64,000 nucleotides of DNA from Nocardia asteroides (GTDB taxonomy: Bacteria > Actinomycetota > Actinomycetes > Mycobacteriales > Mycobacteriaceae). Position 1 is the first letter of the stretch. Every line of letters starts with the position of its first letter. Shown one piece after another: positions 2,578 through 49,977 of this stretch. The DNA lies in contig CP082844.1 of the NCBI GenBank assembly GCA_019930625.1, forward strand, positions 4,898,001 through 4,962,000. Reading direction: 5' to 3'. The notes beneath the pieces were generated by a model that worked only from the letters and a program-made list of their open reading frames with translations, was not told where the DNA came from and searched no databases. A program made the translations under genes and the position numbers.

Positions 2578-2695
2578 CAGGCACCCGGACGGCGGCGGGT
2601 CGCCGGCCCCACGGCTTCGGCCGCCGGAAGATGACGGATCGGGGACTTTTTGCCCTGTCCGACAGCGCGACCCGGTGGTGGTATGGGAGGCCGCG

Positions 2696-4508: not shown

Positions 4509-7500
4509 ATGAATCTGAAGTCAGACGGAACCGCCGACGGCGATCTGGGGCTGATTCCGCTCTCGAGTGCGCAGTACGGCATGTGGCTCGCGGACCACAT
4601 GCCCGGCGGACCGGCTGTCAACATCGCACAGTACGTCGAGATCGAGGGCCCGGTGGACCTCGACGTGTTCAACCGGGCCGTGAACGCCGCCGGGCACGAA
4701 ACCGAGTCCCTTCTCGTGCGCGTGGTCGAATCCGACGGCCGCCCATACCAGTACGTCGACCGCGGCATCATCCACGACGAGCCGCTGCTGGATTTCAGCG
4801 ATGCGGAGGATCCGGTCGCGGCGGCGATGGAATGGATGCGTCGCGACTACAACACCAAGGTGGTCGACCTCGGCCGCGACCGGCTCACCGCGACCAGGCT
4901 CATCCGGGTCGGCGAAAACCACTACTTCTGGTACGGCCGCGCACACCATCTGGTGATCGATGGGTACGGCGCCTTCAACATGCTGACCCGGATGGCCGAG
5001 CATTACAACGCCCTGCTGGAGGGCAGGCCGCCGACGCGACTGGACGCGGCCAGCCTGCGCGAGATCGTCGAAGCGGAGCAGGCCTATCGCGCCAGCAGGC
5101 GGTACGAGACGGACAAGGCCTACTGGCTGAACAAGGTTTCCGATCTTCCGACGCCGGTGAGCCTGTCCGGCCGCACTGCCCGGGCAGGCAAATTGGACCG
5201 CGTGGCCGGGCTGCAGCTGCCCGCGCTCCTGTCCGACCGGCTCGATCGCTTCGCCGCGGAGGTGAACGCGTCCGCCGCGCAGGTGGTGATCGCCGCGTTC
5301 GCCGCCTTCCTCGCCCGGATGACGGGCACCGACGACGTCGCTCTGTCGATGCCGGTGACGGCGCGAGTGACCAAGCGCCTGCGCAACGCCGCCGCGATGC
5401 TGGCGAACATGGTGCCGATTCGCTTCGCTGTGCGGCACTCGACCACCGTGGAGGAGCTGGTACGCGCCTCGGTGTCCGAGCTCGTCTCGGCGATGCGCCA
5501 CCAGCTGTACCGGTTCGAGGATCTGCGCCGCGACTCCGCCGCGCTCGACGCGTCGGCGAACTCCTTCGGACCGATCGTGAACATCCTGTTCTTCGACTCG
5601 GAGATCCGCCTCGGCTCGGCCGCGGGCCGTTACCGCGCGCTGACCTCCGGCGCGCTGGACGATCTGCAGTTGAACCTGTACCGCTCGGGGGCGGACGCGC
5701 CGCTGCTCATCGAGTTGCACGGTAACGCCAACCTCTACCGGCAGGGCGAACTCGAATCGCACGCGGATCGGTTCGTCGATTTCCTGCACCGGATGATGGA
5801 GTCGCCCCTGGACACCCGCATCGGCGACATCCAGCTCGTCGGGCCCGCCGAGGAACTGCGCATCGTGGAGGAGCTCGCGGGCCACGACGGCCGATCCCCC
5901 TCCGCGACACTGGTGGATCTGCTGGCCCGGCAGGCTGCGGCCACCCCGTCCGCGCCGGCCGTCACCTCGGACGACACCACCTTCACCTACCGCGAACTCG
6001 ACGAACGTTCCAACCGGTTCGCCCGCAGGCTCATCGCGCTCGGCGCGGGACCGGAATCACTGGTGGCCATCGCGATGCCACGCGACGCCGATCTGATCGT
6101 CGCCGCGCTCGGTGTGCTGAAATCGGGCGCCGGGTACCTTCCGCTGGACACCGCCCACCCGGCCGAGCGGCTGGAATACGTGCTTGGCGACGCGAACCCG
6201 ATCGCCGTGGTGACGAAGCCGGGCATGCGCGAGCAGGTGCCGGGTGATCCCGGCCGCGTCGTGCTGTTCGACGACGTTCTCGCCGCGGAGCAGGCCGCGG
6301 ACCCGATCACCGATGCCGAACGGACCGGGCCGCTGCGTCCCGACCACCTCGCCTACGTCATCTACACCTCCGGATCGACCGGCCGGCCCAAGGGCGTCAC
6401 GATCACCCACCGGGCCGTGTCCACCTACCTGGTGAACTCGTGCGCCGAGATCGGTATCCGGGCCGGCGACGTCTGGACGTTGTTCCATTCCTTCGCCTTC
6501 GACTACTCGGTGTGGGAGATCTTCGGCGCCCTGGTCACCGGAGGCCGGGTCGTCGTCGTGGACAGCCTCACCTCGCGCTCGCCCGATGACGTGGTGCGTC
6601 TCGCGGCGCGGGAGAAGGTCACGGTCTTCAGCCAGACGCCTTCGGCGTTCTACCAGTTCGCGGCCGCGCGTCAGCGGTACGCGCACGCCGGGGAGCCCGA
6701 AGGCGAGTTGTCGCTGCGGTTGGTCATCCTTTCGGGTGAAGCTCTCGATCCGGCCGCCCTGGCCGACTGGTACGAACACAATCCGAATCTGCCTGTGCTG
6801 GCCAATAGTTACGGGATCACCGAGACCACCGTCTTCGTCACCTACACCGGCCTCACCCCGGACATCGCCGTTCCGGGCGCACCGAGCACCGTGGGTCCGG
6901 CCCTGCCGGGCTTGCGCACGTATGTCCTCGACGAGCGGTTGCGTCCGTGCCCGCTCGGCGCCTGGGGCGAGATCTACGTAGCGGGCACGCAACTCGCGCG
7001 CGGCTATCTCGACCGACCGGCGCTGAGCGCGGGACGTTTCGTCGCGAATCCGTTCGGGCAGCCCGGCGAGCGCCTGTACCGGAGTGGCGATGTCGCGCGC
7101 TGGAATCACGAAGGCGAACTGGAATACCGCGGCCGTGCCGATCAGCAGGTGCAGTTGCGCGGATTCCGGATCGAGCTGGACGAGATCCGCAACGCCCTGC
7201 TCGGCCACAGCAGCGTCGCCGCGGCGGTCGTGGTCGTGCATCTGCCCGGCACGGAGGCGGCCCGGCTCGTCGGCTACGTCGTACCCGCCGTGGGCGCCGC
7301 CTGCGAGGCGGACGACCTGCGCACGCACGTCGGTGGGCTGCTGCCGGAATACATGGTGCCGTCGAGCATCGTCGTCATCGACGCGGTGCCGCTGACGGTG
7401 AACGGCAAGGTCGACTACCGGGCACTGCCCGAGCCGGTGTTCGATTCGGCCGCCGCGTACGTCGCGCCACGCACCGTCGTCGAGGAATCGATCGCGGACG

Positions 7501-7700
7501 TCTTCGCGGAGGTCCTCGGCACGGACCGGGTGGGCGTGCTGGACAGCTTCTTCGAACTCGGCGGCAACTCGATCACCGCGACCAGCGCGGCGGTGCGCAT
7601 CGCGGAAGTGACTCGTTGCGACGTGTCGGTCCGTGATCTGTTCGTCAAACAGACCGTCGCCGAACTCGCCGCTCATCTCGAGGACGCTCGCCGCTCCGCC
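4509..7700 (+). other. NRPS module 1: EntF-like C, A, T
   Basis: The C domain (about 4545-5830; HHLVIDG at 4944-4964) resembles the EntF condensation domain over its length, for instance in [21 protein letters not shown] and the RFEDLRRDS block. EntF-type C domains accept an aryl or acyl carrier donor. The A domain spans about 5905-7430 with YTSGSTG at 6363. The specificity residues read by eye (GrsA 235, 236, 239, 278, 299, 301, 322, 330, 331) are D Y W S I S S V F. The A domain belongs to the same branch as module 7, but its pocket is not one I can assign. The T domain has LGGNS with Ser codon 7569. Confidence 0.85.
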
Positions 7701-10700
7701 AGGCCCGTGCTGCGGGCGGCGGCCAGACCGGAGCCCATCCCGCTGGCACCCGCGCAGAATCGGATGTGGCTGGTCAACCAGACCGACCCGACGTCCGCGG
7801 CCTACAACATCCCGCTGATCGTGCAGCTGACCGGGCGGCTCAACGCCGCGGCGCTGCGTGCCGCGCTGACCGACGTGATCGACCGGCACGAATCGCTGCG
7901 CACCGTCTACCCCGCCGTCGACGGGGAAGGAACACAAGTCGTCCTGTCGGCCGACGAGGTCGTCGCCGGTCTCGACCTGACCCCGCAGCCGACCGATCCG
8001 GACGACATCGACCATCGGATTCGCGAGCTGGCATCGGTCGGGACGGATCTTCGCGAACGCGCGCCGATCCGGGTGGCGCTGCTCGCGACGGCCGACCGCA
8101 GGCGGCATGTCCTCGTCGTCGTCCTGCACCACATCTGCTGCGACGGCTCCTCCCTCCGGCCGCTCGCGGCCGACGTCGCCGTCGCCTACGAGGCACGGGC
8201 GGAGGGCAAGATCCCGGACTGGGAGCCTTTGATCGTCCAGTACGCCGACTACAGCATCTGGCATCGCAGCCTGCTCGGCGACCCGGACGATCCGGATTCT
8301 CGGTCCGCCCATCAATTGCGGTATTGGTCGCGGCAATTGGCGGGGATGCCGCCGGTGCTGGAACTGCCCGCGGACCGACCGCGTCCAGCCCGCCGATCCA
8401 TGCTCGGCGACGTCGCCGACACCGTGATCCCGGCCGAGACCTTCGCCGGGATCGAACGTCTGGCGCGCGCGGCCAACGTCACCACGTTCATGGTCGTCCA
8501 CGCCGCGCTGGCCGTGCTGCTGGCCCGGTTGTCGGGTTCGGCGGACATCACCATCGGCACGCCGGTCGCCGGACGCGGCGAACGCGCGCTCGAGCCACTC
8601 ATCGGCATGTTCGTCAACACCGTGCCGCTGCGCACCGAGGTGTCCTCCGAGGAGTCGTTCACCGAGTTCCTGGCCCGTGTCAAGGACATCGATGTCGATG
8701 CCTTCGCCAACAGCGACGTGCCCTACGAGCGCGTCGTGGACGAACTGCATCCGAAACGGTCCATGGCGTACGCGCCGCTGTGCCAGGTGTATCTCGCATT
8801 CGAGAACATGGACCGGGCGAGCTTGGAGTTGTCCGAGCTCACCGTCGAACTCCTGGATCCGGGGCCCGAACCGGCGAAGGTGGACATCATCGTCACCGTC
8901 GCCGAGAACACCGCAGCGGGTGGGGATGTCGCACTGCGGATCAACTACGCGACCGACCTGTTCGACCGGGAGACCGTCGACGAGCTCGCCGAGCGGCTGA
9001 ACCGGGTTCTCGACGCGTTCGTGTCGAATCCGCGGGCGCGGGTCGGTGACGTGGATCTGTTGTCCGGCGTCGAGCGACTGGGTTTGGTCCCGGCCTCCGG
9101 CGGTCGTGCCGAGACGCCCCGGGTTCTGGCCGACGTCCTGCTGGTCGGCGATCGCGGCACGCCCGCCGTGGTGTCGGGGGATCGGGTGCTCTCGTACGGG
9201 GAGTTGGACGAGTGGTCCAACCGCCTCGCGCGGGTGCTGATCGAATGGGGTGTGGGGCCGGGGGATCAGGTCGCACTGGCTATGGGGCGGTCGGTGGAGT
9301 TCGTCGTCGGTGTGTGGGCGGTGGCGCGGGCGGGCGCCGCGTTCGTGCCGATCGACCCGCGCTATCCCAGCGAGCGGGTCGCGCACATGGTCGCGGACGC
9401 GGAGGTGGAGGTCGCGCTCACGGTCGAGACTTCGTGCGCTCTGCTTCCCGGGCACGTGCGGCAGCTGGTGCTCGACCATCCGGGCACCGAAGCGTTCATC
9501 GCGGCACAGTCACCGGCCGCGGTGACCGACGCGGACCGCGTGCGCGCTTGCCGCGTGGCCGACGCGGCCTACGTGCTCTACACGTCGGGCTCCACCGGCA
9601 AGCCGAAGGGCGTGGCGGTCACCCACGAGGGCCTGGCGAATTTCGCGATCGAACAGCGCGAACGGTATCGCGTCGACCGCAGGTCACGGGTGCTGCAGGT
9701 GGCGGCCCCGGGTTTCGACGCGGTCATGCTGGAACTGCTGATGGCCCACGCGAACGGTGCGGTGCTGGTCGTGTCACCGCCGGAGGTGTTCGCCGGCGCG
9801 CAGCTGGCGGAGTTGATTCGCGCGCACGAGGTATCGCACGCGTTCGTGACCCCGAGCGTGCTGGCGACGATGTCGCCCGCCGGGCTCGATTCGCTGCAGG
9901 TGCTGGTGGCCGGCGGCGAAGCGGTGCCGGCCGAGACGGTCGCGGTGTGGGCGCCGGGACGGCGCCTGCACAACGGATACGGACCGACCGAGACCACGAT
10001 CATGGTCGCGATCAGCGATCCGCTGTGCGTCGGCGACCCGGTCACCATCGGCGGCCCGATCCGCGGCATCGACGCGGTGGTATTGGACGACCGGTTGCGG
10101 CCCGTCCCCGTCGGGGTGACCGGACAGCTGTACGTCTCAGGTGTGCAGCTCTCGCGCGGATACCTCAATCGGCCCGCGTCCACGGCCGCCACTTTCGTCG
10201 CCAACCCGTACGGCCCCGCGGGTACCCGGATGTACGGCACCGGTGACCTCGCGCGCTGGACCACCGAGCACACTTTGGAATATCTGGGGCGCACCGACTT
10301 CCAGGTCAAGATTCGTGGCCAGCGCATCGAGCTCGGCGAAATCGAAGCCGTTCTCGCCGGACACCAGGCGGTCGCGGCCGCGGTCGTGGTAGGCGTGCCC
10401 ACCGACGGCGGAACACGACTGGCGGCGTACGTGGTGCCCGCCGACGGCGCCGTCGATACCGCGGAGCTGACGAAGTACGCGGCCCAACGCCTGCCCTCGC
10501 ACATGGTGCCGGACACGACCATGGTGCTCGACACCCTCCCGCTGTCGTCGGTGGGCAAGGTCGACCGCGCCGCGCTGCCGGAACCCGAGTTCGCCCCCGC
10601 CGTGGAATTCGTCGCACCGCGCAACGCGACCGAGCAGATCGTCGCCGACATCTGCGCGGGCGTGCTGGGCATCGAACGCGTCGGCGTGCTGGACAGCTTC

Positions 10701-13700
10701 TTCGATCTCGGCGGCAACTCGCTGTCGGCCACCCGCGCGGCAGCGCAGCTCAGCGGCGCGTTCGGCGTCGAGGTTCCCTTGCGCGCGATCTTCGAGACCC
10801 CGACCATCGGCGCGCTGGCGGAGCGCCTGCGCAGCGCGGACGCGGCGACGCGGGAGCCCCTGGTACCGCAGGAGCGTCCGGACCGGATCCCGTTGTCACC
10901 CGCCCAGGCCCGCATGTGGTTCCTCAATCAATTCGACACGAGCTCGCCGGTGTACAACATCCCGCTGGTCGTGCGGATGTCGGGCGACCTCGACGTGGCG
11001 GCGATGCACGCGGCGATCGCGGATGTGCTCGAGCGGCACGAGGCGCTGCGGACCGTCTATCCGGACAGTGACAGCGGACCGCATCAGGTGATCGTCCCCG
11101 TCGAGGCGGCGCTGCCGCCGCTGGCACCGGTGACGGTCGCGGCAGGCGAGGTCGAGGCGCGCGTCGTCGCGGAGGTGACGGTGGGCTTCGACGTCACCAC
11201 CGAGGTTCCGTTCCGGGTGGCGCTGTTGCGCACCGCGCCCGACGAGCACTCCCTGGTGCTCGTCGTCCACCACATCAGCTTCGACGGGTCCTCGCTCGCG
11301 CCGCTGGCAGCGGACCTGATGACCGCGTACAAATCCCGTGTCCGGCGCCAGCCGCCGCAGTGGGCGCCGTTGCCCGTGCAGTACGCGGATTACGCGCTGT
11401 GGCAACGAAAACTGCTCGGCACGGAGGACGACCCGCACAGCCCGACCGTCGCCCAGACCCGATACTGGCTCGCGGCTCTCGCCGATCTGCCGGAAGTTCT
11501 CGACCTGCCCACCGACCGCGCGCGGCCTGCCAAGCAGTCCTTCCACGGTGGGACGGTCTCGGCGACGCTGCCCGCGGATCTCCACCGTGAGGTGGTCTCG
11601 CTGGCCCGCCGCCACGACGCGACGGTCTTCATGGTGATGCACGCGGCATACGCGGCGCTGCTGGCGCGGCTGTCCGGTACCGGGGACATCGCGGTGGGCA
11701 CACCGATCGCCGGTCGTGGCGAGCAGGGACTCGACGGCCTGGTCGGCATGTTCGTCAACACGCTGGTGTTGCGGACCTACATCGAGCCCGGCGCGTCCTT
11801 CGTCCGGATCCTGGATCAGGTCCGGGCCACCGACCTGGCCGCCTTCGAGAACGCCGACATCCCGTTCGAGCGTCTCGTCGAGGTGCTGAATCCGCCCCGC
11901 TCGACGGCGCACGCGCCGCTGACGCAGGTGGGTTTCTCGTTCCAGAACATCGAGATCCCCACGGTGGAATTCGAGGGCCTGACGGTGTCGGCCCAGATGG
12001 CCGACCCGAGCGTGGCGAAGTACGACCTGCACCTGAATCTGGTCGACGCCTTGGAACCGGTCGGCGAACCGGGCGACATGGCAGTGGAATTCGGTTACGC
12101 CACGGATCTGTTCGACGAGGCGACGGTCACCGCGATGTTCGAGCGCTACCTGCTGTTGCTGCGCGCGATCGTCCTCGATCCCACCTGCCCCATCGGCGAC
12201 ATCGATCTGCTGACCGCGCAGGAGTCGAGCCGGCTCCGGATGCGGTCGGCCGGGGTGGCGACACCGCTGCCCGCGGTGACGATCGCGGATCTGTTCGCCG
12301 CGCAAGTGGCGGCCACGCCGGAGCATACGGCGGTGCTCGACGACGTGAGCGGCGCCCGTCTCGATTACCGGGACTTCGGCGCGCGGGTGAATTCGCTGGC
12401 CCGCGCGCTGATCCGCCGCGGCGTCGGCCCGGGGACCGTCGTGGCGGTGGCGATGCGGCGCTCGGTCGATCTGCTGGCCACGCTGTACGCCGTTCATGCC
12501 GCGGGCGCGGCCTACCTGCCGCTGGATCCGGATCACCCGGTCGACCGCGTGCGCGCCGTCCTCTCCGCCGCACGTCCGGTTGCGGTCCTGACCCGGCCCG
12601 ACGACCAGGCGAGCTTGCCCGGTGACGTGCCGGTGTGGGCGCACGCGGAGCTCAAAGCCGAGCACGAGGACTCCTCCGCGGTGACCGACGCGGACCGGAC
12701 CCGGCCACTGCGCCCGGAGGATCTGGCCTATGTCATCTACACCTCCGGCTCGACGGGTGTGCCCAAGGGCGTGGCGGTCCCGCACGCCGCGGTGGTGAAC
12801 CAGCTGCGCTGGATGCACGATCACTACCGGCTCGACGGCGACGACGTCATGCTGTTGCGGACGCCGGTGACATTCGACCTGTCGGTCTGGGAGCTGTTCT
12901 CGGCGCCGACCTGTGGCGCGGCAGTGGTCGTCGCAGGCCCTGATGCCCACGGCGACCCGCGCGAGGTCGCTCGGCTGATGGCCGAACATCGGGTGACGAC
13001 GGTGGATTTCGTGCCGTCACTGCTGTCGGCGTTCCTCGAGGTCGCTACTTCGCGTCGGTTCCCGGCGCTGCGCCGTGTGCTGTGCATCGGCGAGGCGCTT
13101 CCGACCGAAACCGTTCGGCGTTTCCGGGATTTCAGCGATGCGCGAATCGACAACCTGTACGGCCCGACGGAGGCCGCGGTCAGTGTCACGGCCCATCGGA
13201 TCGACACTGTCGAGGGCGTGGCCGTGCCGATCGGCGTTCCGGAAGCGAACGTCACCGTTCATGTGCTGGACTCCCGGCTGCATCCCGTTCCGGTCGGCGT
13301 GACCGGTGAGTTGTACCTGGGCGGCGTACAGCTGGCTCGCGGATATCACGAACGACCCGGCCTGACCGCGGCGACGTTCGTCGCGGATCCCTTCGGCGCC
13401 GGGGGCGGGTCTCGGCTCTACTGCACCGGCGACCTCGTTCGCTGGGACGAAGCCGGCGAGCTGCGCTATGTCGGCCGCGCCGACACCCAGGTGAAAGTGC
13501 GCGGCCTGCGCATCGAGCTCGGCGACATCGAAGCCGCGCTGATCGCGCACGAGCAGGTGCACGCGGCCGTCGCGCAGGTATGCGCCGACGGGGGCGAGCA
13601 GCGGTTGGTCGCGTATGTCGTCGCGGACGCGACGCTCGACGTCAGGCAGGTGCGGAGCTTCCTGTCGGACCGGCTGCCCGCCTACATGGTGCCCTCGTCG

Positions 13701-16700
13701 GTGACCCGGATCGACTCCGTGCCGCTCAATGCGAACGGCAAGGTGGACTACCGGGCGTTGCCCGAGCCGGACCCGAGTGCCCAGGTGGCCGAGTTCCGTT
13801 CGCCGCAGGGCCTGGTCGAACAGGCGATCGCCACGGTCTTCGCCGAACTCTTCGACCGGCCCGAGATCGGCGCGGACGACAATTTCTTCGAGCTGGGCGG
13901 CAACTCCCTCGTCGCGACTCGCGCGCTGAGCCGCATCGGTGACGTCGTCGACGTGACGATCCCGGTCCGAGCGATCTTCGAGGCCCCGACCGTGGCCGGC
14001 TTGGCCGAGCGTGTCGCCCGGTTGCGCGCGGTTCCGAGCCTTCCCGCGCCCACCCGGGTCCCGCGGCCGGACCGGATCCCGCTGTCGCACGCGCAGACAC
14101 GGATGTGGTTCCTCAACCAGTTCGATCCCGCCGCACCCGGATATGTCGTGCCGCTGGCGATCCGGCTGGACGGCGCGCTCGATCCGGCCGCCTTGGCGGC
14201 CGCTGTCGGCGATGTCGTGGAGCGGCACGAGAGTTTGCGCACCATGTATCCGGCCGTCGACGGCACACCCACCCAGGTCGTGCTCGACACCGAGGACGTC
14301 TTGGCCACCTGCGATCTCACCCCGCAGGCGGTCGGCGAGCGGGAACTGCCGCACCGGCTGGCCGAATTCTGCGGTATCGGATTCGACGTGGCGAAGGCCG
14401 TGCCGCTGCGCGTCGCGCTGTACCAGTTGTCGGACGCGGCGTGGACGATCGCGCTGGCTGCCCACCACATCAGTTGCGACGGATTCTCGGTGGCTCCGCT
14501 CGCCGCCGACCTGGTGGTGGCGTATCGGGCCCGTTCGGGCGGTGCCGCACCGGCCTGGGCGCCGCTGCCGGTGCAATTCGCCGACTACGCCCTGTGGCAG
14601 CGCGCGGTGCTCGGTTCGGCGGATGACCCGGACTCCTATGTGGCCCGCGACATCGCCTACTGGCGACAGCAGCTCGCGGGGGTGCCGGATCTGCTGGAAT
14701 TGCCGACCGACCGGCCCAGGCCGCTCGAACAGTCCCAGCGCGGCGCGGTGCTGCACGTCGCCATCCCCGGCGAACTGCAGGGGCGGGTGGAGTCGCTGGC
14801 GCGGCGAGCCGGAGCCACCACGTTCATGGTGGTGCACACGGCGCTGGCGGTGCTGCTGTCCAGGCTCTCCGGCAGTGCCGATGTCACCGTCGGGGTGCCG
14901 CACGCGGGCCGTGGCGACCGGTCGCTGGACAACCTCGTCGGCATGTTCGTCAACACCTTGGTGATGCGCACCCGGATCACGCTCGATCAGACCTTCGCCG
15001 GTCTGCTGGAGGAGGTGCGGCGCACCGATATCGAGGCCTTCGACCATGCCACCGTGCCGTTCGAGCAACTGGTGGACGCGCTCAACCCGGTGCGATCCAC
15101 CGCCCACACACCGTTGTTCCAGGTGCTGCTGGCCTACCAGAACATGACTCGAGCTCGCGTCGAGCTTCCGGGGCTCACCGTGGAGAACGTGGACCCGGGC
15201 GACAGCGCGGCGATCTACGACCTGTTGCTCATGATGAGCGAAGGCCACGGCACGCACAACGAGCCGACCGGCATGACCCTGCGCCTGACCTACGCCACGG
15301 ACCTCTTCGACGAGGACACGGCACGGTGCTTCGCCGACCGATTCGTCCGTGTCCTCGACGCCGCGGCCCGCGACGCCGAGTGCACCGTCGGCGAGATCGA
15401 GCTTTTCGGCGCGGCGGAGCGGTCCGAGGTGCTGGAACGGTGGAACGACACCGGTGGCTCCGCAGCACCGGGCCGGACGCTCGTCGACATGTTCGACGAA
15501 CAGGTCGCGCGCACCCCGGACAGTACGGCGATCCGGCTCTCGGATGGCACCGCGTGGACTTACCGGGACTTCGACGCCCGTGTCAACCGCCTCGCCCGAT
15601 GGCTCATCGCGCGCGGCGCCGGGCCGGAAACGATTGTGGCGGTGGCCGTCCGTCGGTCGGCCGAACTCGTCACCGCTGTCTACGCGGTGGTCAAAGCGGG
15701 CGCCGCGTTCCTGCCGATCGACCCCGACCATCCGAGCGCGCGTATCGCGCACGTGCTGGACGCGGCCCGTCCGCTGGTGGTGCTCACGACCGCGGCCGAC
15801 AGCGCGGATCTGCCGAGCGGATTCGAGTGCGTGCCCCTCGACCGGCTGGACGTGACGAACCTGTCCGCGGCCAGGGTCACGGATGCCCAGCGGCGCATGC
15901 CGCTGCGGCCCAACCACCTCGCCTACGTCCTGTTCACCTCCGGGTCCACCGGCGTCCCCAAGGGGGTGGCCCTGACCCATGCCGCCACCGTGAGCCAGTT
16001 GGCGTGGGCGCAGCGGCAGTGGCCGCACGACACCTCCGACGCGGTGCTCCACAAGACGCCGATCACGTTCGACATCGCCGTGTGGGAGTTGTTCTGGCCG
16101 TTGCAGACCGGTGCGCATATCGTCGTCGCCGAACCGGACGGACATCGCGACCCCGCTTACCTGGCAGACGTCATCGCCCGGCGCCGGATCACCACCGTGC
16201 ACTTCGTCCCGTCGATGCTCGATGTCCTGCTCGAATCCGTGGGCGCGGCACGACTGCCTTCGATCCGGCGGGTCTTCGTCGCGGGTGAGGCGCTGGCGCA
16301 ACGCACCGTCGACGACGCGGCGCAGGTCTTCGCGGGAGCCGAGCTGGTGAACTGGTACGGGCCCGCGGAGGCGGAGGTGGTCACGTCTGCGCGGTGCGCA
16401 CCGCACGCGACGACCGCCACGACGGTGCCGATCGGAGCGCCCGCGGCAGGCATGAAGGTCTACGTGCTGGATTCGCGGCTGCGGCCGGTGCCGGTCGGGG
16501 TCGTCGGCGAACTGTACGTCTCCGGCATCCAATTGGCGCGCGGGTACCACGCGCGCGCCGACCTCACCTGCCGCGCCTTCGTCGCGAACCCGTTCGGTGT
16601 GGCGGGGGAGCGGCTGTATCGGACCGGTGACCTGGTCCGGTGGCGGAAGACGGGGGAGCTGGAGTACCTGGGCCGCAGCGACTTCCAGGTGAAGGTGCGC

Positions 16701-19700: not shown

Positions 19701-22700
19701 TACCTCAACCGGCGCACGGCCACGGCCGGTGCGTTCGTCGCCGATCCGCACGGTGAGCCGGGTGCACGGATGTACCGCACCGGTGACATCGTCCGGTGGA
19801 CCGCGCAGCACACTCTGGAATACGTCGGCCGCAGCGATTTCCAGGTCAAGATTCGCGGTCAGCGCATCGAACTCGGTGAGATCGACGCCGCGCTGCTCAC
19901 CCACCCGCAGGTGGCGGCCGCGGTCACCGTGAGCCGCACCGGCCCCGGCGGGCAGCCGCTGCTCGCCGCGTACATCGTCACCGAGACCGGAACGATCGTG
20001 GATCCGGCCACCGTGCTCGACCACGTCGCGTCGGTACTGCCCGCGCACATGGTGCCGTCGGCGCTGACCGTGCTCGACCGCATGCCGATCACCTCGACCG
20101 GCAAGGTGGATCGCAAAGCGCTGCCGGAACCGGTCTTCCGAGCCGCCGGAGACGACGCGGTGGCGGCGTCGACCGATCTGGAGCGCACCATCGCGGTCGC
20201 CTTCGCCGACGTCCTCGGCATCGCGTCGGTCGGTGTCACCACGTCGTTCTTCGCTCTCGGCGGCGATTCCATTCTGTCCATCCAGTTGGCTTCCCGTTTG
20301 AAGTCGGCGGGCGTCATCGTGACGGCGCGCGACATCTTCGAGCACAAGACCGTCCGCGGCCTGGCTCGGGTCGCCGCGGCCGCCGAACGGGTCTCGCTCC
20401 CGGAGCTGCCGGGTGGCGGCGTGGGCGAGATCCCGTTCACGCCCGTCGTTTCCTGGTTCACCGAGCGCCTCGGCGCCGCCCCGCGGTTCGCGCAGTCGAT
20501 GCTGGTGCGCTTGCCGCGTGACGCGCGAGTCGGCGACGTGACCGCGACGGTGCGGGCCGTGCTCGAACAGCACGACATGCTGCGCGCGAGGCTGTGCGAC
20601 CAGCGGTTGGAGGTGCCACCGGCAAGCGCCGCCGACGCAGAAGGCTCGGTGCGCACTCACACCTTCGGCGCCGACCGGGTTCCGGGCAGCGAAGGTTTCA
20701 CCGCGGTGGCCGAAGCGGCGCTCGCCGAGGCCTCCGACCGCCTCGACCCGGCTGCGGGCCGGATGGTGCAGGTCGTGTGCCTGCTGCCCGAGCCGGGCGT
20801 CGACGCCGAAGCGCGCGCCCTCGTCGTCATCCATCACCTGGCGGTCGACGGTGTGTCGTGGCGGATCCTCATCCCGGACTTCGCGACCGCCTGGCAGCAG
20901 GTCACGCGAGGACGAGCGGTGGAGTTGCCCGCGCAGGGCACCTCCATGCGACGCTGGGCGCACGCGGTCGCCGACGCCGCCGCGGGCCGCGCCGAGGAAT
21001 TCGAGCTGTGGCACCGGATGGCCGCGGCCCCCGATCCGCTGCTGGGCAGTGCGGTGCTGGATCCCGCCCTCGACACGCACTCGACGGTCCGGCATCTGAC
21101 GGTGACCCTCCCGGTGGAGACCACCTCGGCCTTGCTGGACGCGGTCCCGAGGGCCGTGCACGGCAACGTCGACGACGCGTTGCTGGCCGGCCTGGCCGTG
21201 GCGACGACACGCTGGCGCCACCGGCGTGGAGTCGCGCACGCGGGCTTGAAAGTACTGCTGGAGGGCCATGGACGCGCCGAGCAGATCGCCGAGGGCGCGG
21301 ATGTCTCACGCACGGTGGGGTGGTTCACCAACACCTATCCGGTGGCGCTCGACCTGAGCGGGGTCGAAGCGCGGGATCCGCGTGCCGCGGTGAAATCCGT
21401 GAAAGATCAGCTGCGCCGCATTCCGGACAAGGGAATCGGCTACGGCCTGTTGCGCTACCTGCACACGGACACGTCCGCGCGGCTCGCGGCACTGCCGGAG
21501 CCGCAGATCGGTTTCAACAATCTCGGCCGGGTCGGCGTCGATCTCACGACGCTGTCGGATCTCGCGTGGATCCCGACCGACGAGACGTTCGACCGGCGGT
21601 CGGCGTTCGATCCGGACATGCCCGCGGCGGCGGCCGTCACGATCGATGTGAACATCGTGGACACCCCGGCCGGACCGCGTCTGACAGCACACGTCGGCTA
21701 CGCCTCCAGGCTGCTCGAACACGACGACGTAGCCGAACTCGTCGACGAATGGGTCGACGCGCTCACCGAGATCACCGCGGCGGCCCGTGCGGAGGAGGAT
21801 TGGGGCTTCTCCCCGGCCGACGTTCCGCTCGTCGAGGTCACCCAGACCGACCTGGACGCCTTCGCCGGCCGCTACGGATCCCTCGCCGATGTCTGGTCGT
21901 TGGCGCCGTTGCAAGCCGGGTTGCTGTTCCACGCCGAGCTCGCGGCGGGTGATCTCGACGTCTACACCGCGCAATCGACACTCACCCTCGCCGGCGTGAT
22001 CGATGAGCATCGGCTCGAGCGTGCCGCGGCCGCCCTGCTCGAGCGTCATCCCAACCTGCGAGCGGCCTTCGTCCGGACGGCGGACGGCATTCCGGCGCAG
22101 GTGATCCCAGCCGCTTCGGTCGGGCGCTGGCGGCGGGTCGACCTGCGGGACGGCACGACGACACCGGAGGAACTGATCGCGGCCGAGCGGGCGGTACCGT
22201 TCGATCCCGCCGATCCGCCGCTGCTGCGGTTCCTGCTCATCGCCGTGGCGCCGCAGGAGTTCCGCCTGGTGCTGACGGCCCACCACCTGCTGCTGGACGG
22301 CTGGTCGTTGCCGTTGCTGTGGCGCGAGCTGATCGGCCTGTACGCCGTGGGCGCGCGCGCGGAGCTGTTGCCCGCGGTGGCGTCCTACCGCGGCTACTTG
22401 GAATGGCTGGATCGGCGCGAACCGTCCGCCGGAATCCAAGTGTGGCGGGAGGTCTTGGGCGATTTCACCGAACCCACCGTGGTCGCCGACGCGCGGACGC
22501 ACACGACGGTCGGCATCCCGGTCGACTCGGCCGTCGTGCTCGATCGCGCAGTCACCGCCGAGCTGGTGGAGTACGCCCGCGCTCGAGCGGTGACCATGGC
22601 GACGATCGTGCAGTTCGCCTGGGGCGTGGTGCTGGGTAACCTGCTCGGCGTCGAGCGCGTGGTGTTCGGTGGCACGGTCTCGGGACGCCCCGCCGAACTG

Positions 22701-25700
22701 CCGGGCGTGGAGTCGATGATCGGCCTGTTCATCAACACGATTCCGGTCGCCGTGCACGTCCCGCGGGCATCAACCATCGAGGAGGCGCTGCAGCGGTTGC
22801 AGGCGGACAACACCCGTCTGCTCGATCACCACGACGTCGAGCTGTCCCGGATCCTGTCGGCCGTGGACGCTGCCCAGCTGTTCGACACGCTGGTCGTCTT
22901 CGAGTCCTACCCGGTCGACAGCAGCGGTCTGGGCGAGGCGGACATCGACGGCATGCGAGTGATCGCGGCGGACGGCAGCGACGCCGCGCACTACCCGATC
23001 ACCGTTCAGGCCCACCAGGACGACCGGTTGCACGTCAGGATCCGCTACCAGCAGGCCCGTGTCGACGACCGGACGGCCGCCGCTCTCGCCGCCCGTCTGG
23101 AAACGGTGCTGCGCGCCATCCCGGCCGAACCGCGGGCGCTGTTGGGCGCGGTCGACCTGTTGTCCGCGGCAGAGCGCCGCGCCCTGGTGCCTGCCACGGG
23201 CGGGCAGGCGCGGTCGGCCTGTGTGCTGGCGGAGTTGCTGGCCGCCGGTGCGGCGACGAATCCCGATGCGGCAGCGGTCGTCTCGTGTGCGCGGACGATG
23301 TCGTACGCCGAGCTGGACGCCTGGTCGAATCGCGTCGCCCGCGCGCTGATCGACTGGGGCGTCGGCCCCGGCGATCAGGTGGCGTTGGCGATGGCGCGGT
23401 CGGTGGAATTCGTGGTCGGCATCTGGGCCGTGGCCAAGACGGGCGCCGCGTTCCTGCCCGTCGATCCGCGGAATCCGGCCGACCGCGTGGGACACATGCT
23501 CGCCGATTCCCAGGTGCGGGTTGCGGTCACGGTCGCGGCGTCGCGGGAGCTGGTCCCGGATCCCGTCCGGCGGCTGGTGCTCGACGATCCGGCGACCCGC
23601 GAGGCGATCGCGGGCCGGTCGGCGGAGGCGGTGACGGACAGCGACCGGCTGCGGACGCCGGATGTTCGCGACGCGGCCTACGTCTTGTACACCTCGGGCT
23701 CGACCGGGACGCCGAAGGGAGTCGCGGTCACCCACGAGGGCCTGGCGAATTTCGCGGCCGTGCAACGTGTCCGATTCGGCGCGGACAGCCGCTCGCGCGT
23801 GCTGAACGCCTCCGCTCCCGGTTTCGACGTCGTGGTGCTCGAGATCCTGCTGGCCCACGCCAACGGCGCGGTACTGCTGGTGCCGCCACCGGATGTGTTC
23901 GGTGGTCCCGAGCTGGCGGAATTCATTCGGGCACAGCGGGTATCGCACTCGTTCATGACCCCGAGCGTGCTGGCGACGATGTCGCCGGAGGGGTTGGATT
24001 CGCTGCGGGTGCTGGTGGCCGGTGGCGAGGCGGTGACACCGGAGATCGTCACAGTGTGGTCGCCGGGCCGTCGACTGCTGAACGGGTACGGCCCGACCGA
24101 GACGACGATTCTGGCCGGAATCAGTGCTCCGCTGAATCCCGGTGAAACCGTCACGATCGGTGGGCCGATCAGTGGCGTCGAGGCCGTAGTGCTGGACGCG
24201 TGGTTGCGGCCGGTGCCGGTCGGGGTGGCCGGTGAGTTGTATCTGGCGGGCGTGCAACTGGCCCGCGGATACGTGAACCGGCCGGTGGCGACATCGGGCG
24301 CATTCGTCGCGAATCCGTTCGGTGCGGCGGGGTCGCGTATGTACCGCACCGGCGACTTGGCCCGCTGGACACCGGAACACACCTTGGAATACCTCGGTCG
24401 CAGCGACTTCCAAGTCAAGATCCGCGGTCAGCGCATCGAACTCGGGGAGATCGAAGCCGTCCTGGCCGGACAACCCGGTGTGGAACACGCCGTGGTCGTG
24501 CTGCGGAAGGATGAGCGCGGTATCGGCCGGCTCGTGGGCTACCTCGTCGGTTCCGAGGACTTGGATCCGGAGGAGATCAGGGCCGCCGCGCGGCTGCGGT
24601 TGCCCGCGCACATGGTGCCCGACGCGTGCGTGGTGCTCGCGGAGTTCCCGCTCACCAGGACCGGGAAGCTGGACCGCATGGCGCTTCCCGCGCCGGAATT
24701 CTCGGCGGCGCGAGCCTGGGTCGCCCCGCGCACGGAAACCGAACGGCAGGTGGCGGAAGTGTTCGGCAACGTGCTGGACATCGACCGCGTCGGTGCCACC
24801 GACAGTTTCTTCGACCTCGGCGGCAATTCGCTGTCGGCGACGCGCGTGACCGCCCAGTTGGGCACGGCGCTCGGAGTCGGCCTCGGCGTCCGTGACCTGT
24901 TCGAAGCGCCGACCGTCGCGCAGCTCGCCGCCCGTGTGGCCACCTCCGAGCGGACCGACCGGCTGCCGCTGGTACCGCGCACCCGTCCCACACTGGTTCC
25001 GCTGTCGCTGGCACAGCAGCGGATGTGGTTCCTCAATCAGCTCGACACCTCCGTCGGTGCCTACAACATCCCGCTGGTGATCCGGCTGAAGGGCGAACTG
25101 GACATCTGTGCGTTGCGGCGCGCGTGCGAGCTGGTCATCGAGCGGCACGAATCACTGCGGACCAAGTTCCCGACCACCGACGGAACGCCTCATCAGGTCA
25201 CCGTTCCCGCCGAGGCGGTCCCGGCGACGCTGACCGCGGTCACGGTCGAGGCGGAGCGGCTGATGGAGCGGGTGCTCGCCACGGTCTCGGCGAGCTTCGA
25301 CGTGACACAGGCGCCCCCGCTGCGCATGGAGTTGTTCCGGCTCGACGAGCACGAGCACGTGCTGGTCATCGCCGTGCACCACATCTGCGCCGACGGACAG
25401 TCCATGCTGCCGCTCGCGCGGGACGTGGCGGTGGCCTACCAGGCGAGCAAGCACGGGACGCCACCGTTGTGGCCCGCTCTCGCGGTGCAGTACGCGGACT
25501 ACACCCTGTGGCAACGGGACGTCCTCGGTGACGAGCGCGACCCCGGCTCGGTCATGGCACAGCAGTTGCGGTTCTGGAAGGACACGCTCTGCGGCCTGCC
25601 CGAGCTGCTCGAGTTGCCCACCGACCTGCCGCGGCCGCCGGTGGCGTCCATGCGCGGCCGAACGGTCGATTTCGAGATCTCCGCGTCGTTGCAGGAACGA

Positions 25701-28700
25701 ATCGGTGCGGTCGCGCGGGCGGCGAACGCGACGGTCTTCATGGTCATGCACGCCGCGCTGACCGCCCTGCTGTCGCGGCTGGCCGGTGTCACCGATATCG
25801 CGGTGGGCACGCCGGTGGCGGGCCGAGGGGAACGCGAACTCGACGATCTGATCGGCATGTTCGTCAACACGCTCGTCCTGCGGACGCAGGTGTCGCCGCG
25901 GGAGTCGTTCGCCGATCTGCTCGCCGCGACCCGCGAGACGGATCTGGCCGCGTTCGCGCATGCCGACGTGCCCTTCGAGCAAGTGGTGGAGGCGCTGAAT
26001 CCGCCGCGTTCCACCGCGCATCTGCCGCTGTATCAGGTGACGCTCGATGTCCAGAACCTGAGCAAGGCCGCCTTGGAGCTGCCCGGGCTCACCGTCGAGC
26101 CGGTCGAGAACGGTTTCGAACCGGCGCAGGCCGACTTGAACCTGAACCTGGTGGAGCAATCCGGTGACCAAGGGCATCCGGACGGCATCCGGGGACGGCT
26201 GACCTATGCCACCGATCTGTTCGTCGAGGCGACGATGACCCGGTTCGCGCAGGCCTACGTGCGGATCCTGGAAGAGGTGACCGCGAACCCGGCGGTCGCG
26301 GTCGGCGACATCGACCTCGTGGACCCGGCGCAGCGTCGCGAACTGCTCGACGCGGCCGGTGACGCCGGGGTCGCGGTGGCTGACACGACCCTCGCGGAGT
26401 TGTTCGCCGCCCAGGCCATGGCGCGGCCGGACGCAGTCGCGGTGACCGACGGTGCGTCACAGCTGACCTACGCCGAACTCGATCGGCGCGCCGCCGCGGT
26501 GGCGGCTCGGCTGGCCGAGCAGGGCGTGGGTCCGGAAACACTGGTGGCCGTGGCATTGCCGCGCACGGCCGACCTGGTAGTCGGCCTGCTCGGCGTCGTG
26601 CGCGCGGGGGCGGGATATCTGCCGCTGGACGTCGCGTATCCGCCGGAGCGACTGCGATTCATGCTCGACGACGCTCGCCCGGCCGCGGTGCTGACGTCGG
26701 CGGACCTGTCCGCGGCAGTGCCGGAATGCACCGCGCCGGTACTGCTGGTCGAGGATTGCCGGAGCGACAGCGCGGCCGTGCCGGCCGCGGTATCGGGTGT
26801 GCGGCCGGGCAACGTCGCCTACGTGATCTACACGTCGGGATCGACCGGCCGCCCGAAGGGTGTGACGGTCAGCCATCGGGAAGCGGTCACTTTGTTCGCC
26901 AACGCGGCCGAGCGGTTCGACGTGGGACCCGACGACGTGTGGACGATGTTCCATTCGTACGCATTCGATTTCGCGGTGTGGGAGATCTGGGGCGCGTTGC
27001 TGTCCGGCGGCAAGGTCGTCGTGGTCGACTACGACACGTCCCGGTCGCCGGAGGCGTTCGTGGACGTCGTCGCCCGGGAGCGCGTGACGGTGTTGAGCCA
27101 GACACCGTCGGCGTTCTACGGATTCGCCGAGGCGGAGCGCCGGTATCGCGAAGCCGGTTGTCCGGCAGGTGATCTCGCGCTGCGCTATGTCGTCTTCGGT
27201 GGCGAGGCGCTGGATGCGTCCCGGTTGGGCGACTGGTTCGCGGCGCATGCGCCGGGAACGCCGCGGCTGATCAACATGTACGGCATCACCGAGACGACCG
27301 TGCACGTGACGTTCTCCGAGGTCACCCACGCCGACTCGGCGGGGATCGGTTCGCCGCTTCCCGGGTTGCGGGTATACGTCCTCGACGACCGCCTGCGTCC
27401 GGCGCCGATCGGTGTGGCCGGGGAGATCTACGTCTCCGGTGGCCAGCTCGCGCGAGGTTATCTGGGCGCGCCCGCCCTGACGGCGGGACGATTCGTGGCC
27501 GACCCGTTCGATCCCGACGGCGCCCGGCTCTACCGATCCGGGGACGTGGGCCGGTGGCGGAATGCCGCCGGCGGGCTGGAGTTGGTGTACGCGGGCCGGG
27601 CCGACGCGCAGGTGCAGTTGCGCGGGTTCCGCATCGAGCTGGGCGAGGTGGAGTCGGCCCTGCTGAGGCATCCGCTCGTCACTCAGGCCGCTGTCACGGT
27701 GCACCGGCACGATCGCGGTGTGGATCAGCTGATCGGCTACGTCGTCGGCATCGACGGCGAGCGGATCGACCCGGCCGAGGTCCGCGAGACCGCAGCGGAG
27801 GTGCTGACCGGTTACATGGTGCCCGCGGCGATCATGGTGCTGCCCGCACTGCCGCTCACGGTCAACGGAAAGCTCGACCGGAAAGCACTGCCCGCTCCCG
27901 CGTTCGAGGAGTCGACGGAGACGTTCGTCGCGCCGCGGACCCACACCGAGAAGGTGATCAGCGAGGTCTACGCGCTGGTCCTGGGCGTCGGGCGGGTCGG
28001 TGTTTCGGACGGGTTCTTCGATCTCGGCGGCAACTCGCTACTGGCGACGATGGTGGTCACCGAGTTGCGCACGCGCGGTGTGACGATCCAGTTGCCGTGG
28101 ATTTTCGACGACGCGACGCCGAAAGCCCTGGCGGCCAGGGCCGACGGCGCGGCAGGAGCCTCTGGGCTGCAAGTGTTGCTGCCGCTGCGTGCGCACGGCG
28201 CGAAGCCGGCGATCTTCGCGGTGCACCCTGCGGGCGGGCTGGCGTGGTTCTACGGCGGAGTGGTCGAACATCTGCACAGGGACCGGCCGTTGTACGGTTT
28301 GCAGGATCCCCATGTCGTAGCGGGCGAACCGGGTGCGCATTCCGTCGATGAACTCGCCGAACGCTATGTGGCCGAGATTCGCCGAGTGCAGCCGAGCGGA
28401 CCGTATCACTTGCTCGGATGGTCGTTGGGCGGTGCGATCGCGCACGCCGTGGCGGTCCGGCTCCAGCGAGCGGGACAGCGCGTCGGCATGCTGGCCATGA
28501 TGGACAGTGCTGTCGGCGACTCGGAGGCGCTGGCCGCGTCGATGAGCACCACCGCGGACCAGCCCGCGCCGGGTGAGCTGATGGCCGATCTGCTCGGTGG
28601 CTGGCGAGAGCTGTTCGATCTCGGCGCCGAGGTGACAGCGGACACCCACGAGCGGGCATGGGCGGTGATCCGCGATCAGGTGACCGCCAGCGGAATGTTC

Positions 28701-28979
28701 ACCGCCGAACAGGTCGACCGGGTGATGGAGAGTTTCCAGACCGCGGCCGGCATCGCCCAGGAGTACCGACCGGAGGTTTTCGACGGCGACCTGGTCTTCT
28801 TCACCGCGGGCAAGGACCGCGCGGACCACGACGCCGTCGTGCGGACGTGGCGGCCCTTCATCACCGGTGACCTGCACAACACGGTCGTCGACGCACGTCA
28901 TCTCGAATTGACTCACCCGCACGCCCTGGCTGTCATCGGCCCGATCCTCGAACGGTTCTCGAACGCCGATTCGGCCTGA
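4509..28979 (+). CDS. giant seven-module non-ribosomal peptide synthetase with terminal thioesterase
   Basis: This single gene encodes about 8156 residues. The ATG at 4509 is chosen because GAGGGG lies seven bases upstream; an ATG at 4494 is the alternative. Domain order is C-A-T | C-A-T | C-A-T | C-A-T | C-A-T-E | C-A-T | C-A-T-TE. All seven C domains carry HHxxxDG (first His near residues 146, 1207, 2254, 3319, 4382, 5925, 6957), the E domain carries HHLAVDG (5442), each A domain has the [YF]TSGSTG core and a C-terminal GK[VL]D lysine, and carrier serines are near 1021, 2071, 3133, 4196, 5254, 6774 and 7843. The thioesterase has GWSLGG with Ser7972. Because the protein begins with an EntF-like C domain and lacks a loading module, the first amino acid should be capped by an acyl or aryl group delivered in trans. 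The terminal TE should release a linear or cyclic heptapeptide. No MbtH homologue, transporter or tailoring enzyme is adjacent. The product is unknown. Confidence 0.97.
7730..10840 (+). other. NRPS module 2: C, A, T
   Basis: The C domain looks LCL-type with HHICCDG at 8127-8147. The A domain core YTSGSTG starts at 9579. The specificity residues read D A L F V G G I M, a hydrophobic pocket suggesting an aliphatic or other non-polar residue; this is inference. The carrier motif LGGNS has its Ser codon at 10719. The A domain is a close paralogue of those in modules 5 and 6. Confidence 0.85.
10870..14020 (+). other. NRPS module 3: C, A, T
   Basis: The C domain is LCL-like (HHISFDG at 11268-11288). 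The A domain core YTSGSTG starts at 12738; specificity residues read D L W D L I L V S. The scaffold ([19 protein letters not shown]) is the one common in serine-activating A domains, but His278 and the rest of the serine pocket are replaced, so the substrate is open. The T domain LGGNS has its Ser codon at 13905. Confidence 0.8.
14060..17210 (+). other. NRPS module 4: C, A, T with atypical carrier motif
   Basis: The C domain carries HHISCDG at 14463-14483. The A domain has FTSGSTG (15933) instead of YTSGSTG, and the usual NxYGPTE block reads NWYGPAE. Specificity residues read D I W H F A W V V, which resembles no code I can name with confidence. The T domain motif is IGVNS rather than LGGNS: the glycine two residues before the phosphopantetheine serine (codon 17094) is a valine. 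The serine itself remains. Confidence 0.8.
17250..21800 (+). other. NRPS module 5: C, A, T, E (D-residue)
   Basis: The C domain carries HHIAADG at 17652. The A domain core begins at 19119; specificity residues read D A L F A G I I V, again a hydrophobic pocket. The T domain has LGGDS (Ser codon 20268), the variant that usually precedes epimerisation domains. The E domain (about 20430-21770) has HHLAVDG at 20832, [14 protein letters not shown] and IGFNNLGR, so it looks intact. The residue at position 5 should be delivered in D form. Confidence 0.9.
21830..24950 (+). other. NRPS module 6: DCL-type C, A, T
   Basis: The C domain opens with [14 protein letters not shown] and has HHLLLDGWS at 22281, features of C domains that accept a D-configured upstream residue, in agreement with the E domain before it. 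The A domain core starts at 23688; specificity residues read D V L F V G G I L, close to module 2. The T domain LGGNS has its Ser codon at 24828. Confidence 0.88.
24980..28979 (+). other. NRPS module 7: C, A (threonine-like), T, TE
   Basis: The C domain carries HHICADG at 25377. The A domain core starts at 26829; specificity residues read D F W S V G M V H, which differs from the well-known threonine code (DFWNVGMVHK) only at position 278, so threonine is the best guess. The T domain LGGNS has its Ser codon at 28035. The type I thioesterase (about 28190-28970) has GWSLGG with Ser codon 28422 and a C-terminal [10 protein letters not shown] histidine. No further condensation or reductase domain follows. 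Confidence 0.88.
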
Positions 28980-48129: not shown

Positions 48130-48164
48130 GCCGACCAGAACATTCAGTAGTTCTGGTTCAGCCG
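48123..48164. terminator. interrupted hairpin after the frameshifted gene
   Basis: CGGCTGA (48123-48129) pairs with TCAGCCG (48158-48164) and, inside it, CCAGAAC (48135-48141) pairs with GTTCTGG (48150-48156). It starts at the stop codon of the upstream remnant. Confidence 0.55.
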
Positions 48165-49904: not shown

Positions 49905-49977
49905 CCCAACCAGTGACTCAAGGATTTTACCTGGGAGGGTCTGCGGCCGAAGGTGTGTGGATGCCGAGACCTGGTCA

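What the first reader, a model, noticed from the sequence alone, without database searches (positions are those of the whole stretch)
4509..28979. Orphan single-gene heptamodular NRPS with an EntF-like starter C domain
One gene of about 8156 codons holds seven complete modules, one epimerisation domain and a thioesterase, yet there is no MbtH, transporter, regulator or tailoring gene beside it. The N-terminal EntF-like C domain means the chain is capped by an acyl or aryl unit supplied in trans. The predicted skeleton is acyl/aryl-X1-X2-X3-X4-D-X5-X6-Thr(?), with X2, X5 and X6 hydrophobic. I know of no described product with this plan.
Basis: partly seen in the sequence, partly recalled or inferred. 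Interest (0 to 1): 0.75.

Follow-up and report, generated by a model that had tools for sequence, protein, structure and literature searches.

The report
Nocardia seven-module lipopeptide synthetase
One giant gene probably builds a fatty-acid-capped seven-residue peptide; relatives of it occur in many Nocardia species, and it is a good candidate for making peptidolipin, a compound described in the 1960s for which I found no published gene.

Summary
In detail: one unbroken frame (4494-28979, 8161 aa) with a starter C domain, seven A and seven carrier domains, one E domain (module 5) and a thioesterase. It is no one-off: relatives (starter C domain at least 59% identical) occur in 63 of 150 Nocardia genomes, 55 of 67 copies in frames of 8100-8300 codons. 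An FkbM-family methyltransferase is found in 49 of 64 synthetase-bearing genomes and 0 of 86 others, in 34 of them directly behind the synthetase; our genome lacks it. The starter domain scores higher against acyl-loading (RzmA, CDA) than against EntF domains, and its chain-length gate residue is Ala. Codes read Thr-type / Val-type / small / atypical / D-aliphatic / Val-type / Thr. Best product match: peptidolipin NA and its Val6 analogue, made by N. arthritidis, which carries the gene (about 90% in the starter domain) and shows no other complete seven-module starter-C line in its draft genome. Misfits: no E domain for the recalled D-Ala3, and no canonical Pro code in module 4.

The parts
4494..28979 (+). 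heptamodular NRPS gene, 8161 aa (start 4494 or 4509)
   Evidence: 55 relatives of similar frame length in the genus
4554..5855 (+). starter condensation domain Cs, [11 protein letters not shown]; Ala at the RzmA R148 chain-length gate
   Evidence: PF00668 183 bits; best solved relatives RzmA-Cs and CDA-C1; gate rule from PMC7804268 section 7
5904..7418 (+). A1 (approximate bounds), code DYWSISSVFK, Thr subtype
   Evidence: nearest non-orthologous A domains carry Thr codes
7737..9077 (+). C2, LCL type
9120..10568 (+). A2 (approximate), code DALFVGGIMK, Val-type
10884..12236 (+). C3, LCL type
12279..13754 (+). A3 (approximate), code DLWDLILVSK, related to Ser domains, small pocket proposed
14073..15428 (+). 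C4, LCL type (no E before it)
15474..16943 (+). A4 (approximate), code DIWHFAWVVK, related to Ser domains, atypical pocket; Pro proposed
17256..18617 (+). C5, LCL type
18660..20117 (+). A5 (approximate), code DALFAGIIVK, branched aliphatic
20433..21782 (+). epimerisation domain of module 5 ([10 protein letters not shown])
21888..23189 (+). C6, DCL type, accepts the D-residue
23229..24677 (+). A6 (approximate), code DVLFVGGILK, Val/Ala-type proposed
24996..26348 (+). C7, LCL type
26370..27884 (+). A7 (approximate), code DFWSVGMVHK = Thr
28212..28925 (+). type I thioesterase (PF00975), GWSLG; proposed lactonisation and release

Best explanation
A single-polypeptide lipoheptapeptide synthetase of the genus Nocardia, most likely the peptidolipin synthetase. 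Proposed steps: the starter C domain takes a long 3-hydroxyacyl group (probably as acyl-CoA, since no acyl ligase gene was seen beside it) and N-acylates Thr1 (inferred). Modules 2-7 add Val2, Ala3, Pro4, Ile5 (turned to the D form by the E domain and passed to a DCL-type C6; domain types shown, chemistry inferred), Val6 or Ala6 and Thr7. The TE releases the chain as a lactone onto the fatty-acid 3-hydroxyl (inferred from the TE and the known product). Of the 64 Nocardia genomes that have the synthetase, 49 also have an FkbM-type methyltransferase, usually directly behind it, that would O-methylate the peptide; this genome has lost it, so its product should be the unmethylated form.
For: Starter C: PDB ranking and gate residue; GYGAF kept in 13 of 13 orthologs compared. 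Codes nearly invariant in 17 full-length orthologs: 13, G017, 3 (A2 identical in 17 of 17; A3, A4 and A7 in 16 of 17 each). A7 is listed among Thr-activating codes, with modified Thr (PMC12283262 passage). A1's nearest non-orthologous A domains have Thr codes, and the GPL synthetase Thr code reads DYWSVGMVHK. A2 and A6 are of one subtype, fitting Val2 and Val6/Ala6. The only E is in module 5, fitting D-alloIle5. N. arthritidis IFM 10035T makes peptidolipin NA and the Val6 analogue (PMC11364655 section 9); the record N. arthritidis NBRC 100137 carries the gene (L100). Among 51 NRPS A domains read there, the 8181-aa frame is the only one with starter C, seven A domains, terminal Thr code and TE. 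Mass check: Thr2-Val-Ala2-Pro-Ile + 3-OH-C20 lactone = 963.662, the 963.66 given for peptidolipin NA; Val6 + C27 = 1089.803, the 1089.80 given in the text for peptidolipin B.
Against: The recalled structure has D-Ala3, but module 3 has no E domain and C4 sits with LCL domains, not DCL. A4 is not a canonical Pro code: 59 of 71 surveyed Pro domains have Val236 and Gln239, A4 has Ile236 and Trp239, its nearest non-orthologous relatives are Ser domains, and against 18 reference codes, partly recalled, it ties between Ser, Pro, Leu and Ala at 3 of 8. A3 does not resemble the Ala codes of GPL synthetase. A6 ties between Val, Ala and Gly. The Ala gate is not special: another starter-C NRPS of this genome also reads GYGA. 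Residue order and D/L assignment of peptidolipin are recalled; only composition was cross-checked by mass. NBRC 100137 = IFM 10035 is recalled. N. arthritidis is a draft; several NRPS pieces end at contig ends, and A domains were found by a motif that misses some. The 79 kept loci (260 matching stretches, best 80 kept) name no N. asteroides or N. mangyaensis record; peptidolipins are reported from both, but 'N. asteroides' ATCC 9969 may be another species, and the N. mangyaensis spectrum (502.74, 2+) does not fit 963.66.
Confidence: 0.55

Rival explanations
1. A conserved Nocardia acyl-heptapeptide synthetase whose product is not peptidolipin but an undescribed lipopeptide, e.g. acyl-Thr*-Val-(Ala/Gly/Ser)-(Ala/Gly)-D-Ile/Leu-Val-Thr, linear or lactone.
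For: A3 and A4 are nearest to Ser-type domains, with changed, less polar pockets, pointing to Ala or Gly; no E in module 3; codes differ from canonical Pro and from GPL Ala.
Against: Would leave peptidolipin without a synthetase in the N. arthritidis sequence examined, while matching it in length, cap, Thr7, Thr-type residue 1, D-aliphatic residue 5 and paired Val-type residues 2 and 6.
Confidence: 0.38
2. Aryl-capped (DHB- or salicyl-) siderophore-like peptide, as the first reader's EntF comparison allows.
For: Starter C domains of aryl type (ObiF1, EntF; loading recalled) are also relatives, 199 and 170 bits, ObiF1 only 9-15 bits below the acyl starters.
Against: Acyl starters score higher (208-214 bits) and the gate residue is Ala. 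In the neighbouring frames scanned, the only AMP-ligase match outside NRPSs is weak and about 33 kb away (61724-62860), and no isochorismate-type family was hit. As I read the codes, none of the seven is an Orn/Lys type.
Confidence: 0.04
3. The 8161-aa NRPS and the 3039-aa trimodular NRPS upstream form one deca-modular pathway.
For: They are neighbours in G000, G059, G125 and N. arthritidis G017.
Against: Each ends in its own TE and ours begins with a starter C; a close trimodular homologue (about 83%) was seen beside the gene in only 2 of the 12 other contexts (12 kb upstream, 18 kb downstream looked at), G085 showing a 46% relative.
Confidence: 0.03

Closest known systems
Peptidolipin NA / L-Val6-peptidolipin NA (Nocardia cyclic lipoheptapeptides)
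   Same: Nocardia; N. arthritidis makes it and carries the gene; seven residues; long-chain 3-hydroxyacyl cap; Thr7; hydrophobic 2, 5, 6 with D at 5; Val/Ala alternative at 6 (residue order recalled)
   Different: Recalled D-Ala3 has no E domain in module 3; Pro4 would need a non-canonical code; no gene assigned in the 5 of 17 papers I opened
Humimycin A/B synthetases (Rhodococcus; e.g. iupU, NRPS-5 architecture)
   Same: starter C and acyl-heptapeptide plan (PMC5550956 passages, PMC12024397 Table 1)
   Different: Product plan Tyr-Ser-D-Tyr-Phe-D-Thr-Val-Val, two D residues; cluster carries MbtH, amidohydrolase and N-acyltransferase; product known from synthesis of the prediction
Rhizomide/holrhizin starter C domains (RzmA, HolA)
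   Same: RzmA-Cs is the best solved relative of our starter C; same GYG-A/R gate motif; acyl-CoA used directly (PMC7804268, passages and section 7)
   Different: Different bacteria and peptide; acyl length C2/C8 there
Glycopeptidolipid synthetases Mps1/Mps2 (Mycolicibacterium peregrinum; naming and product recalled)
   Same: Mycobacteriales starter-C lipopeptide synthetase; Thr code DYWSVGMVHK close to A1/A7
   Different: Four modules with three E domains, Ala codes unlike A3/A4
Nocardia GCF 6 (large NRPS of 7-13 modules, PMC7413640 section 8)
   Same: large conserved Nocardia NRPS
   Different: GCF 6 always has nitropropane dioxygenase, metallopeptidase, esterase, epimerase and enoyl-CoA dehydratase neighbours; none of these was hit in the frames scanned on either side within about 10 kb

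Membership tests
Lipopeptide NRPS with starter C domain | N-terminal C domain that groups with starter C domains, before the first A | tested here: met
   tree of 65 C/E domains; PDB ranking
Lipopeptide NRPS with starter C domain | small residue at the acyl-length gate for C8 or longer | tested here: met
   Ala aligned to RzmA R148; rule in PMC7804268 section 7
Lipopeptide NRPS with starter C domain | acyl group is actually transferred | not testable with these tools
   needs enzyme assay
Peptidolipin synthetase | seven modules plus terminal TE | tested here: met
Peptidolipin synthetase | Thr at position 7 | tested here: met
   DFWSVGMVHK, listed among Thr codes
Peptidolipin synthetase | Thr at position 1 | tested here: inconclusive
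   Thr-subtype domain with altered pocket DYWSISSVFK
Peptidolipin synthetase | Val2 and Val6/Ala6, aliphatic residue 5 | tested here: inconclusive
   of 8 variable positions, A2 shares 4 with Val; A6 3 with each of Val, Ala and Gly; A5 4 with Leu, 3 with Ile (reference codes partly recalled)
Peptidolipin synthetase | D residue at position 5 | tested here: met
   E domain in module 5 followed by DCL C6
Peptidolipin synthetase | D residue (recalled D-Ala) at position 3 through an E domain | tested here: not met
   no E in module 3; C4 groups with LCL
Peptidolipin synthetase | Pro-specific A4 | tested here: inconclusive
   non-canonical code; among 51 codes read in N. arthritidis the only DVQ-type code sits in a bimodular NRPS
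Peptidolipin synthetase | present in a proven producer | tested here: met
   L100, N. arthritidis NBRC 100137; producer IFM 10035T; strain equivalence recalled
Humimycin synthetase | two D residues (3 and 5) and MbtH in the cluster | tested here: not met
   one E only; the two MbtH genes are over 2 Mb away
EntF-type aryl-loading synthetase | starter C closest to EntF; Ser module | tested here: not met
   EntF ranks below RzmA, CDA and ObiF1; no Ser code in module 1

The most novel reading that the evidence does not exclude
This is the peptidolipin synthetase, and it makes its D-Ala3 without an epimerisation domain (A3 loading D-Ala directly, then an LCL-type C4 accepting it) and its Pro4 with a Ser-related A domain of new code DIWHFAWVVK. 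Most Nocardia species that carry it make O-methylated peptidolipins with an overlapping FkbM methyltransferase that has been lost more than once, as differently placed remnants suggest.
Probability: 0.33. Interest if true: 0.68.

Novelty: new member of a known kind. Interest (0 to 1): 0.5.

Why it matters
If right, it gives a gene to a lipopeptide family isolated in the 1960s; none is assigned in the 5 of 17 held papers that I opened (the rest seen as listings). It predicts peptidolipin-type molecules in 63 of 150 Nocardia species genomes. It offers two testable departures from textbook rules (a new Pro code, D-Ala without E) and a natural series of losses of a partner methyltransferase, some with remnants in place.

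Tried and rejected
Peptidolipin was put aside at first because A4 gave no Pro code, then revived by the producer strain. Rejected: GCF 6 of PMC7413640 (neighbours differ); a joint pathway with the trimodular NRPS; an aryl cap. My first neighbour scan reported the FkbM gene in 6 of 13 contexts because its filters dropped two (G125, G142); one search shows 8 of 13, and the genus count does not depend on those filters. The automatic codes were wrong at positions 299/301; only aligned codes (and later) are used. Code look-ups in papers gave one useful paper. In the protein search none of the 120 listed proteins is longer than 7994 aa, so it showed no full-length relatives. No MIBiG, antiSMASH or NRPSpredictor run was possible. 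The counts come from rows that I copied by hand; I dropped the rows under 59% (synthetase) and, for the methyltransferase, rows under 60% and partial matches (G002, G052, G017 and second pieces in G010 and G023), all of which lie in synthetase-bearing genomes. PF23024 (FAAL-type) gave 3 matches in the genome, one below cut-off, none near this gene.
Full report
What is there. The window lies at G000:C1:4898001-4962000 of a 7.4 Mb genome whose nearest relatives are Nocardia. Frame 4494-28979 (+) has 8161 codons and no internal stop. It holds a starter C domain, six further C domains, seven A domains, seven carrier domains, one E domain in module 5 and a thioesterase. In a tree of 65 C/E domains from this genome, three orthologs and one set of mycobacterial GPL synthetases, C1 falls with starter domains, C6 with DCL domains, and C2, C3, C4, C5 and C7 with LCL domains.

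It is a genus-wide family. A search with the starter C domain against 150 Nocardia genomes finds 67 copies at 59% identity or more in 63 genomes, plus one fragment in a 64th. Of the 67, 55 have open frames of 8100-8300 codons, 11 have shorter frames (10 of them in multi-contig assemblies, one, G130, in a single contig) and one has 8672. In the named collection 57 of the 79 kept loci are Nocardia at 61% or more; the next best is 43%. Whole-protein identity to 11 of the 12 fetched orthologs runs from 90% to 64% over nearly full length; for G034 the best single alignment is 59% over part of the protein. Four genomes have two copies.

The peptide looks conserved. Reading ten-residue pocket codes by alignment gives A1 DYWSISSVFK, A2 DALFVGGIMK, A3 DLWDLILVSK, A4 DIWHFAWVVK, A5 DALFAGIIVK, A6 DVLFVGGILK, A7 DFWSVGMVHK. 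Over 17 full-length orthologs A2 is identical in all, and A3, A4 and A7 in 16 each. The method was checked on the M. peregrinum GPL synthetase, where it returns the expected Phe and Thr codes (the GPL residue order and canonical codes are recalled). A7 is listed among Thr codes (PMC12283262, passages). A1's nearest relatives outside the family are Thr domains; A4's are Ser domains; A3's are DLWH/DVWD types and Ser domains; A2, A5 and A6 are one subtype. Against 18 reference codes, partly recalled, A3 is nearest to Ser (4 of 8), A4 ties at 3 of 8 between Ser, Pro, Leu and Ala, and A6 ties at 3 of 8 between Val, Ala and Gly.

The cap. Against solved structures the starter domain scores RzmA-Cs 209-214 bits, CDA 208, ObiF1 199, EntF 170, VibH 97, TycC 65. 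PMC7804268 (section 7 read, other passages) shows that RzmA R148 and its equivalents gate acyl length: Arg C2, Met C6, Ala C8 in HolA. Our residue there is Ala, and the motif GYGAF is kept in 13 of 13 orthologs; another starter-C NRPS of this genome reads GYGA too. So an acyl chain, supplied in trans, is the better reading, by a small margin over ObiF1. That paper shows such domains can take acyl-CoA directly, which would explain why no acyl ligase was seen beside the gene.

A lost partner. In many relatives an FkbM-family methyltransferase (TIGR01444) follows at once. Counting nearly full-length matches at 60% identity or more, it occurs in 49 of 64 synthetase-bearing genomes and in none of the 86 others (50 copies; two of the 50, in G024 and G054, have a stop inside). 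34 of the 50 copies lie on the same strand and contig 24.3-29.5 kb after the starter C match, i.e. behind the synthetase. Of the other 16, 14 are on other contigs, in some cases although the synthetase frame is whole (for example G016, G024, G028), so the gene may have moved there; G023's is 32 kb away and G130's second copy lies elsewhere. At the synthetase stop, 9 of 13 sequences read ATGCTGA, so that the methyltransferase start overlaps the stop (5 of these 9 have the gene intact, 4 do not); G057 and G034 read ATGA, G085 has a short gap, and our genome has none of these. In the 13 contexts 8 have the intact gene. Our genome has neither gene nor remnant there; its best match elsewhere is 36%. 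N. arthritidis keeps residues 3-52, G115 residues 2-33, G122 residues 229-260, G121 perhaps 2-15, and G052 and G002 C-terminal parts. Losses at different ends suggest separate deletions. The other neighbours of our copy (trimodular NRPS, WS/DGAT, PNPOx) were seen only in close relatives.

What it makes. Peptidolipin NA, as I recall it, is 3-hydroxyeicosanoyl-Thr-Val-D-Ala-Pro-D-alloIle-Ala-Thr lactone, with Val at 6 in the analogue. That composition agrees with the masses in PMC10920908 (963.66 and, in its text, 1089.80). N. arthritidis IFM 10035T makes both forms (PMC11364655, section 9 read), and the N. arthritidis NBRC 100137 record carries this gene (L100). I read 51 A domains from that genome's NRPS loci (all 69 condensation matches above cut-off were covered; three weaker matches were not fetched; the motif used misses some A domains). 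Only the 8181-aa frame has a starter C, seven A domains, a terminal Thr code and a TE. The other starter-C frames are a 4444-aa frame (first code DIENIGGITK), a 4549-aa and a 2432-aa frame (first code Ser), a contig-cut 7617-aa frame (DVWDFILVSK) and a contig-cut 2785-aa frame (Ser). The only DVQ-type (Pro-like) code is in the 2432-aa, two-module frame. This supports our gene as the peptidolipin synthetase by elimination, within a draft assembly.

What does not fit. No E domain or DCL partner accounts for D-Ala3; A4 is not a canonical Pro code; A3 is unlike GPL Ala codes. Either A3 takes D-Ala directly and A4 is a new Pro type, or the product is a related, undescribed heptapeptide. I put 0.55 on peptidolipin.

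Compared with what is known. It should work like a surfactin- or rhizomide-type lipopeptide synthetase and is a new member of that kind. The heptapeptide-with-starter-C plan is already described for humimycin synthetases (PMC5550956, PMC12024397; passages read). Seventeen held papers name peptidolipin with Nocardia, and six of those also hold 'gene cluster' and 'NRPS'. I opened 5 of the 17 in passages or a section (PMC11364655, PMC10920908, PMC7460354, PMC10059750, PMC9230156); none of what I saw assigns a gene to it, and the other 12 were seen only as listings. The two 2012 and 2016 original papers that I tried by id are not held.

Noticed in passing
G000:C1 about 2760000-2805000 (outside the window; L182-L184): A single 14,723-codon NRPS frame with a starter C, many Ser/Thr-type A domains and two E domains, no TE motif seen at its end.
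   Followed up: partly
L021 8700-17819 (genome 4888700-4897819, just upstream of the window): Trimodular NRPS starting with an A domain and ending in a TE (codes DFICLGVIFK, DVWDFILVSK, DFWNIGMVHK), neighbour of our gene in close relatives only.
   Followed up: partly
window about 17076 (T4): Carrier domain 4 reads G-V/I/L-N/D-S instead of GGxS at the phosphopantetheine site in 12 of 12 orthologs where the motif was found, of 13 looked at.
   Followed up: no
G130:C1:6774816 and 5692665: Single-contig genome in which the synthetase frame is interrupted (2331 codons open around the starter domain) and two FkbM copies exist.
   Followed up: no
several other Nocardia genomes: FkbM-like stretches at 30-36% identity inside large frames, most of 9,400-11,100 codons and some of 2,400-7,000, i.e. 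methyltransferase-like domains embedded in giant proteins.
   Followed up: no
window 54897-63999 and L022 1-14431: Separate reducing type I PKS (KS-AT-DH-ER-KR-ACP) with AMP-binding-like and aldehyde-dehydrogenase-like frames, then aldo/keto reductase, P450, thioester-reductase-like gene and two ABC transporter genes.
   Followed up: no
window about 47000-53700: Region of weaker codon bias with a ricin-type lectin frame, a DDE transposase piece and a partial GT20 frame, looks like a mobile insertion.
   Followed up: no
G144:C1:3443596 (9037 aa): A different starter-C NRPS with six A domains and four E domains; its starter domain is 52% identical to ours.
   Followed up: partly
PMC10920908 Table 4: The spectrum assigned to peptidolipin NA and B (502.74, 2+) does not match either mass, so production by N. 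mangyaensis rests on a weak match.
   Followed up: partly
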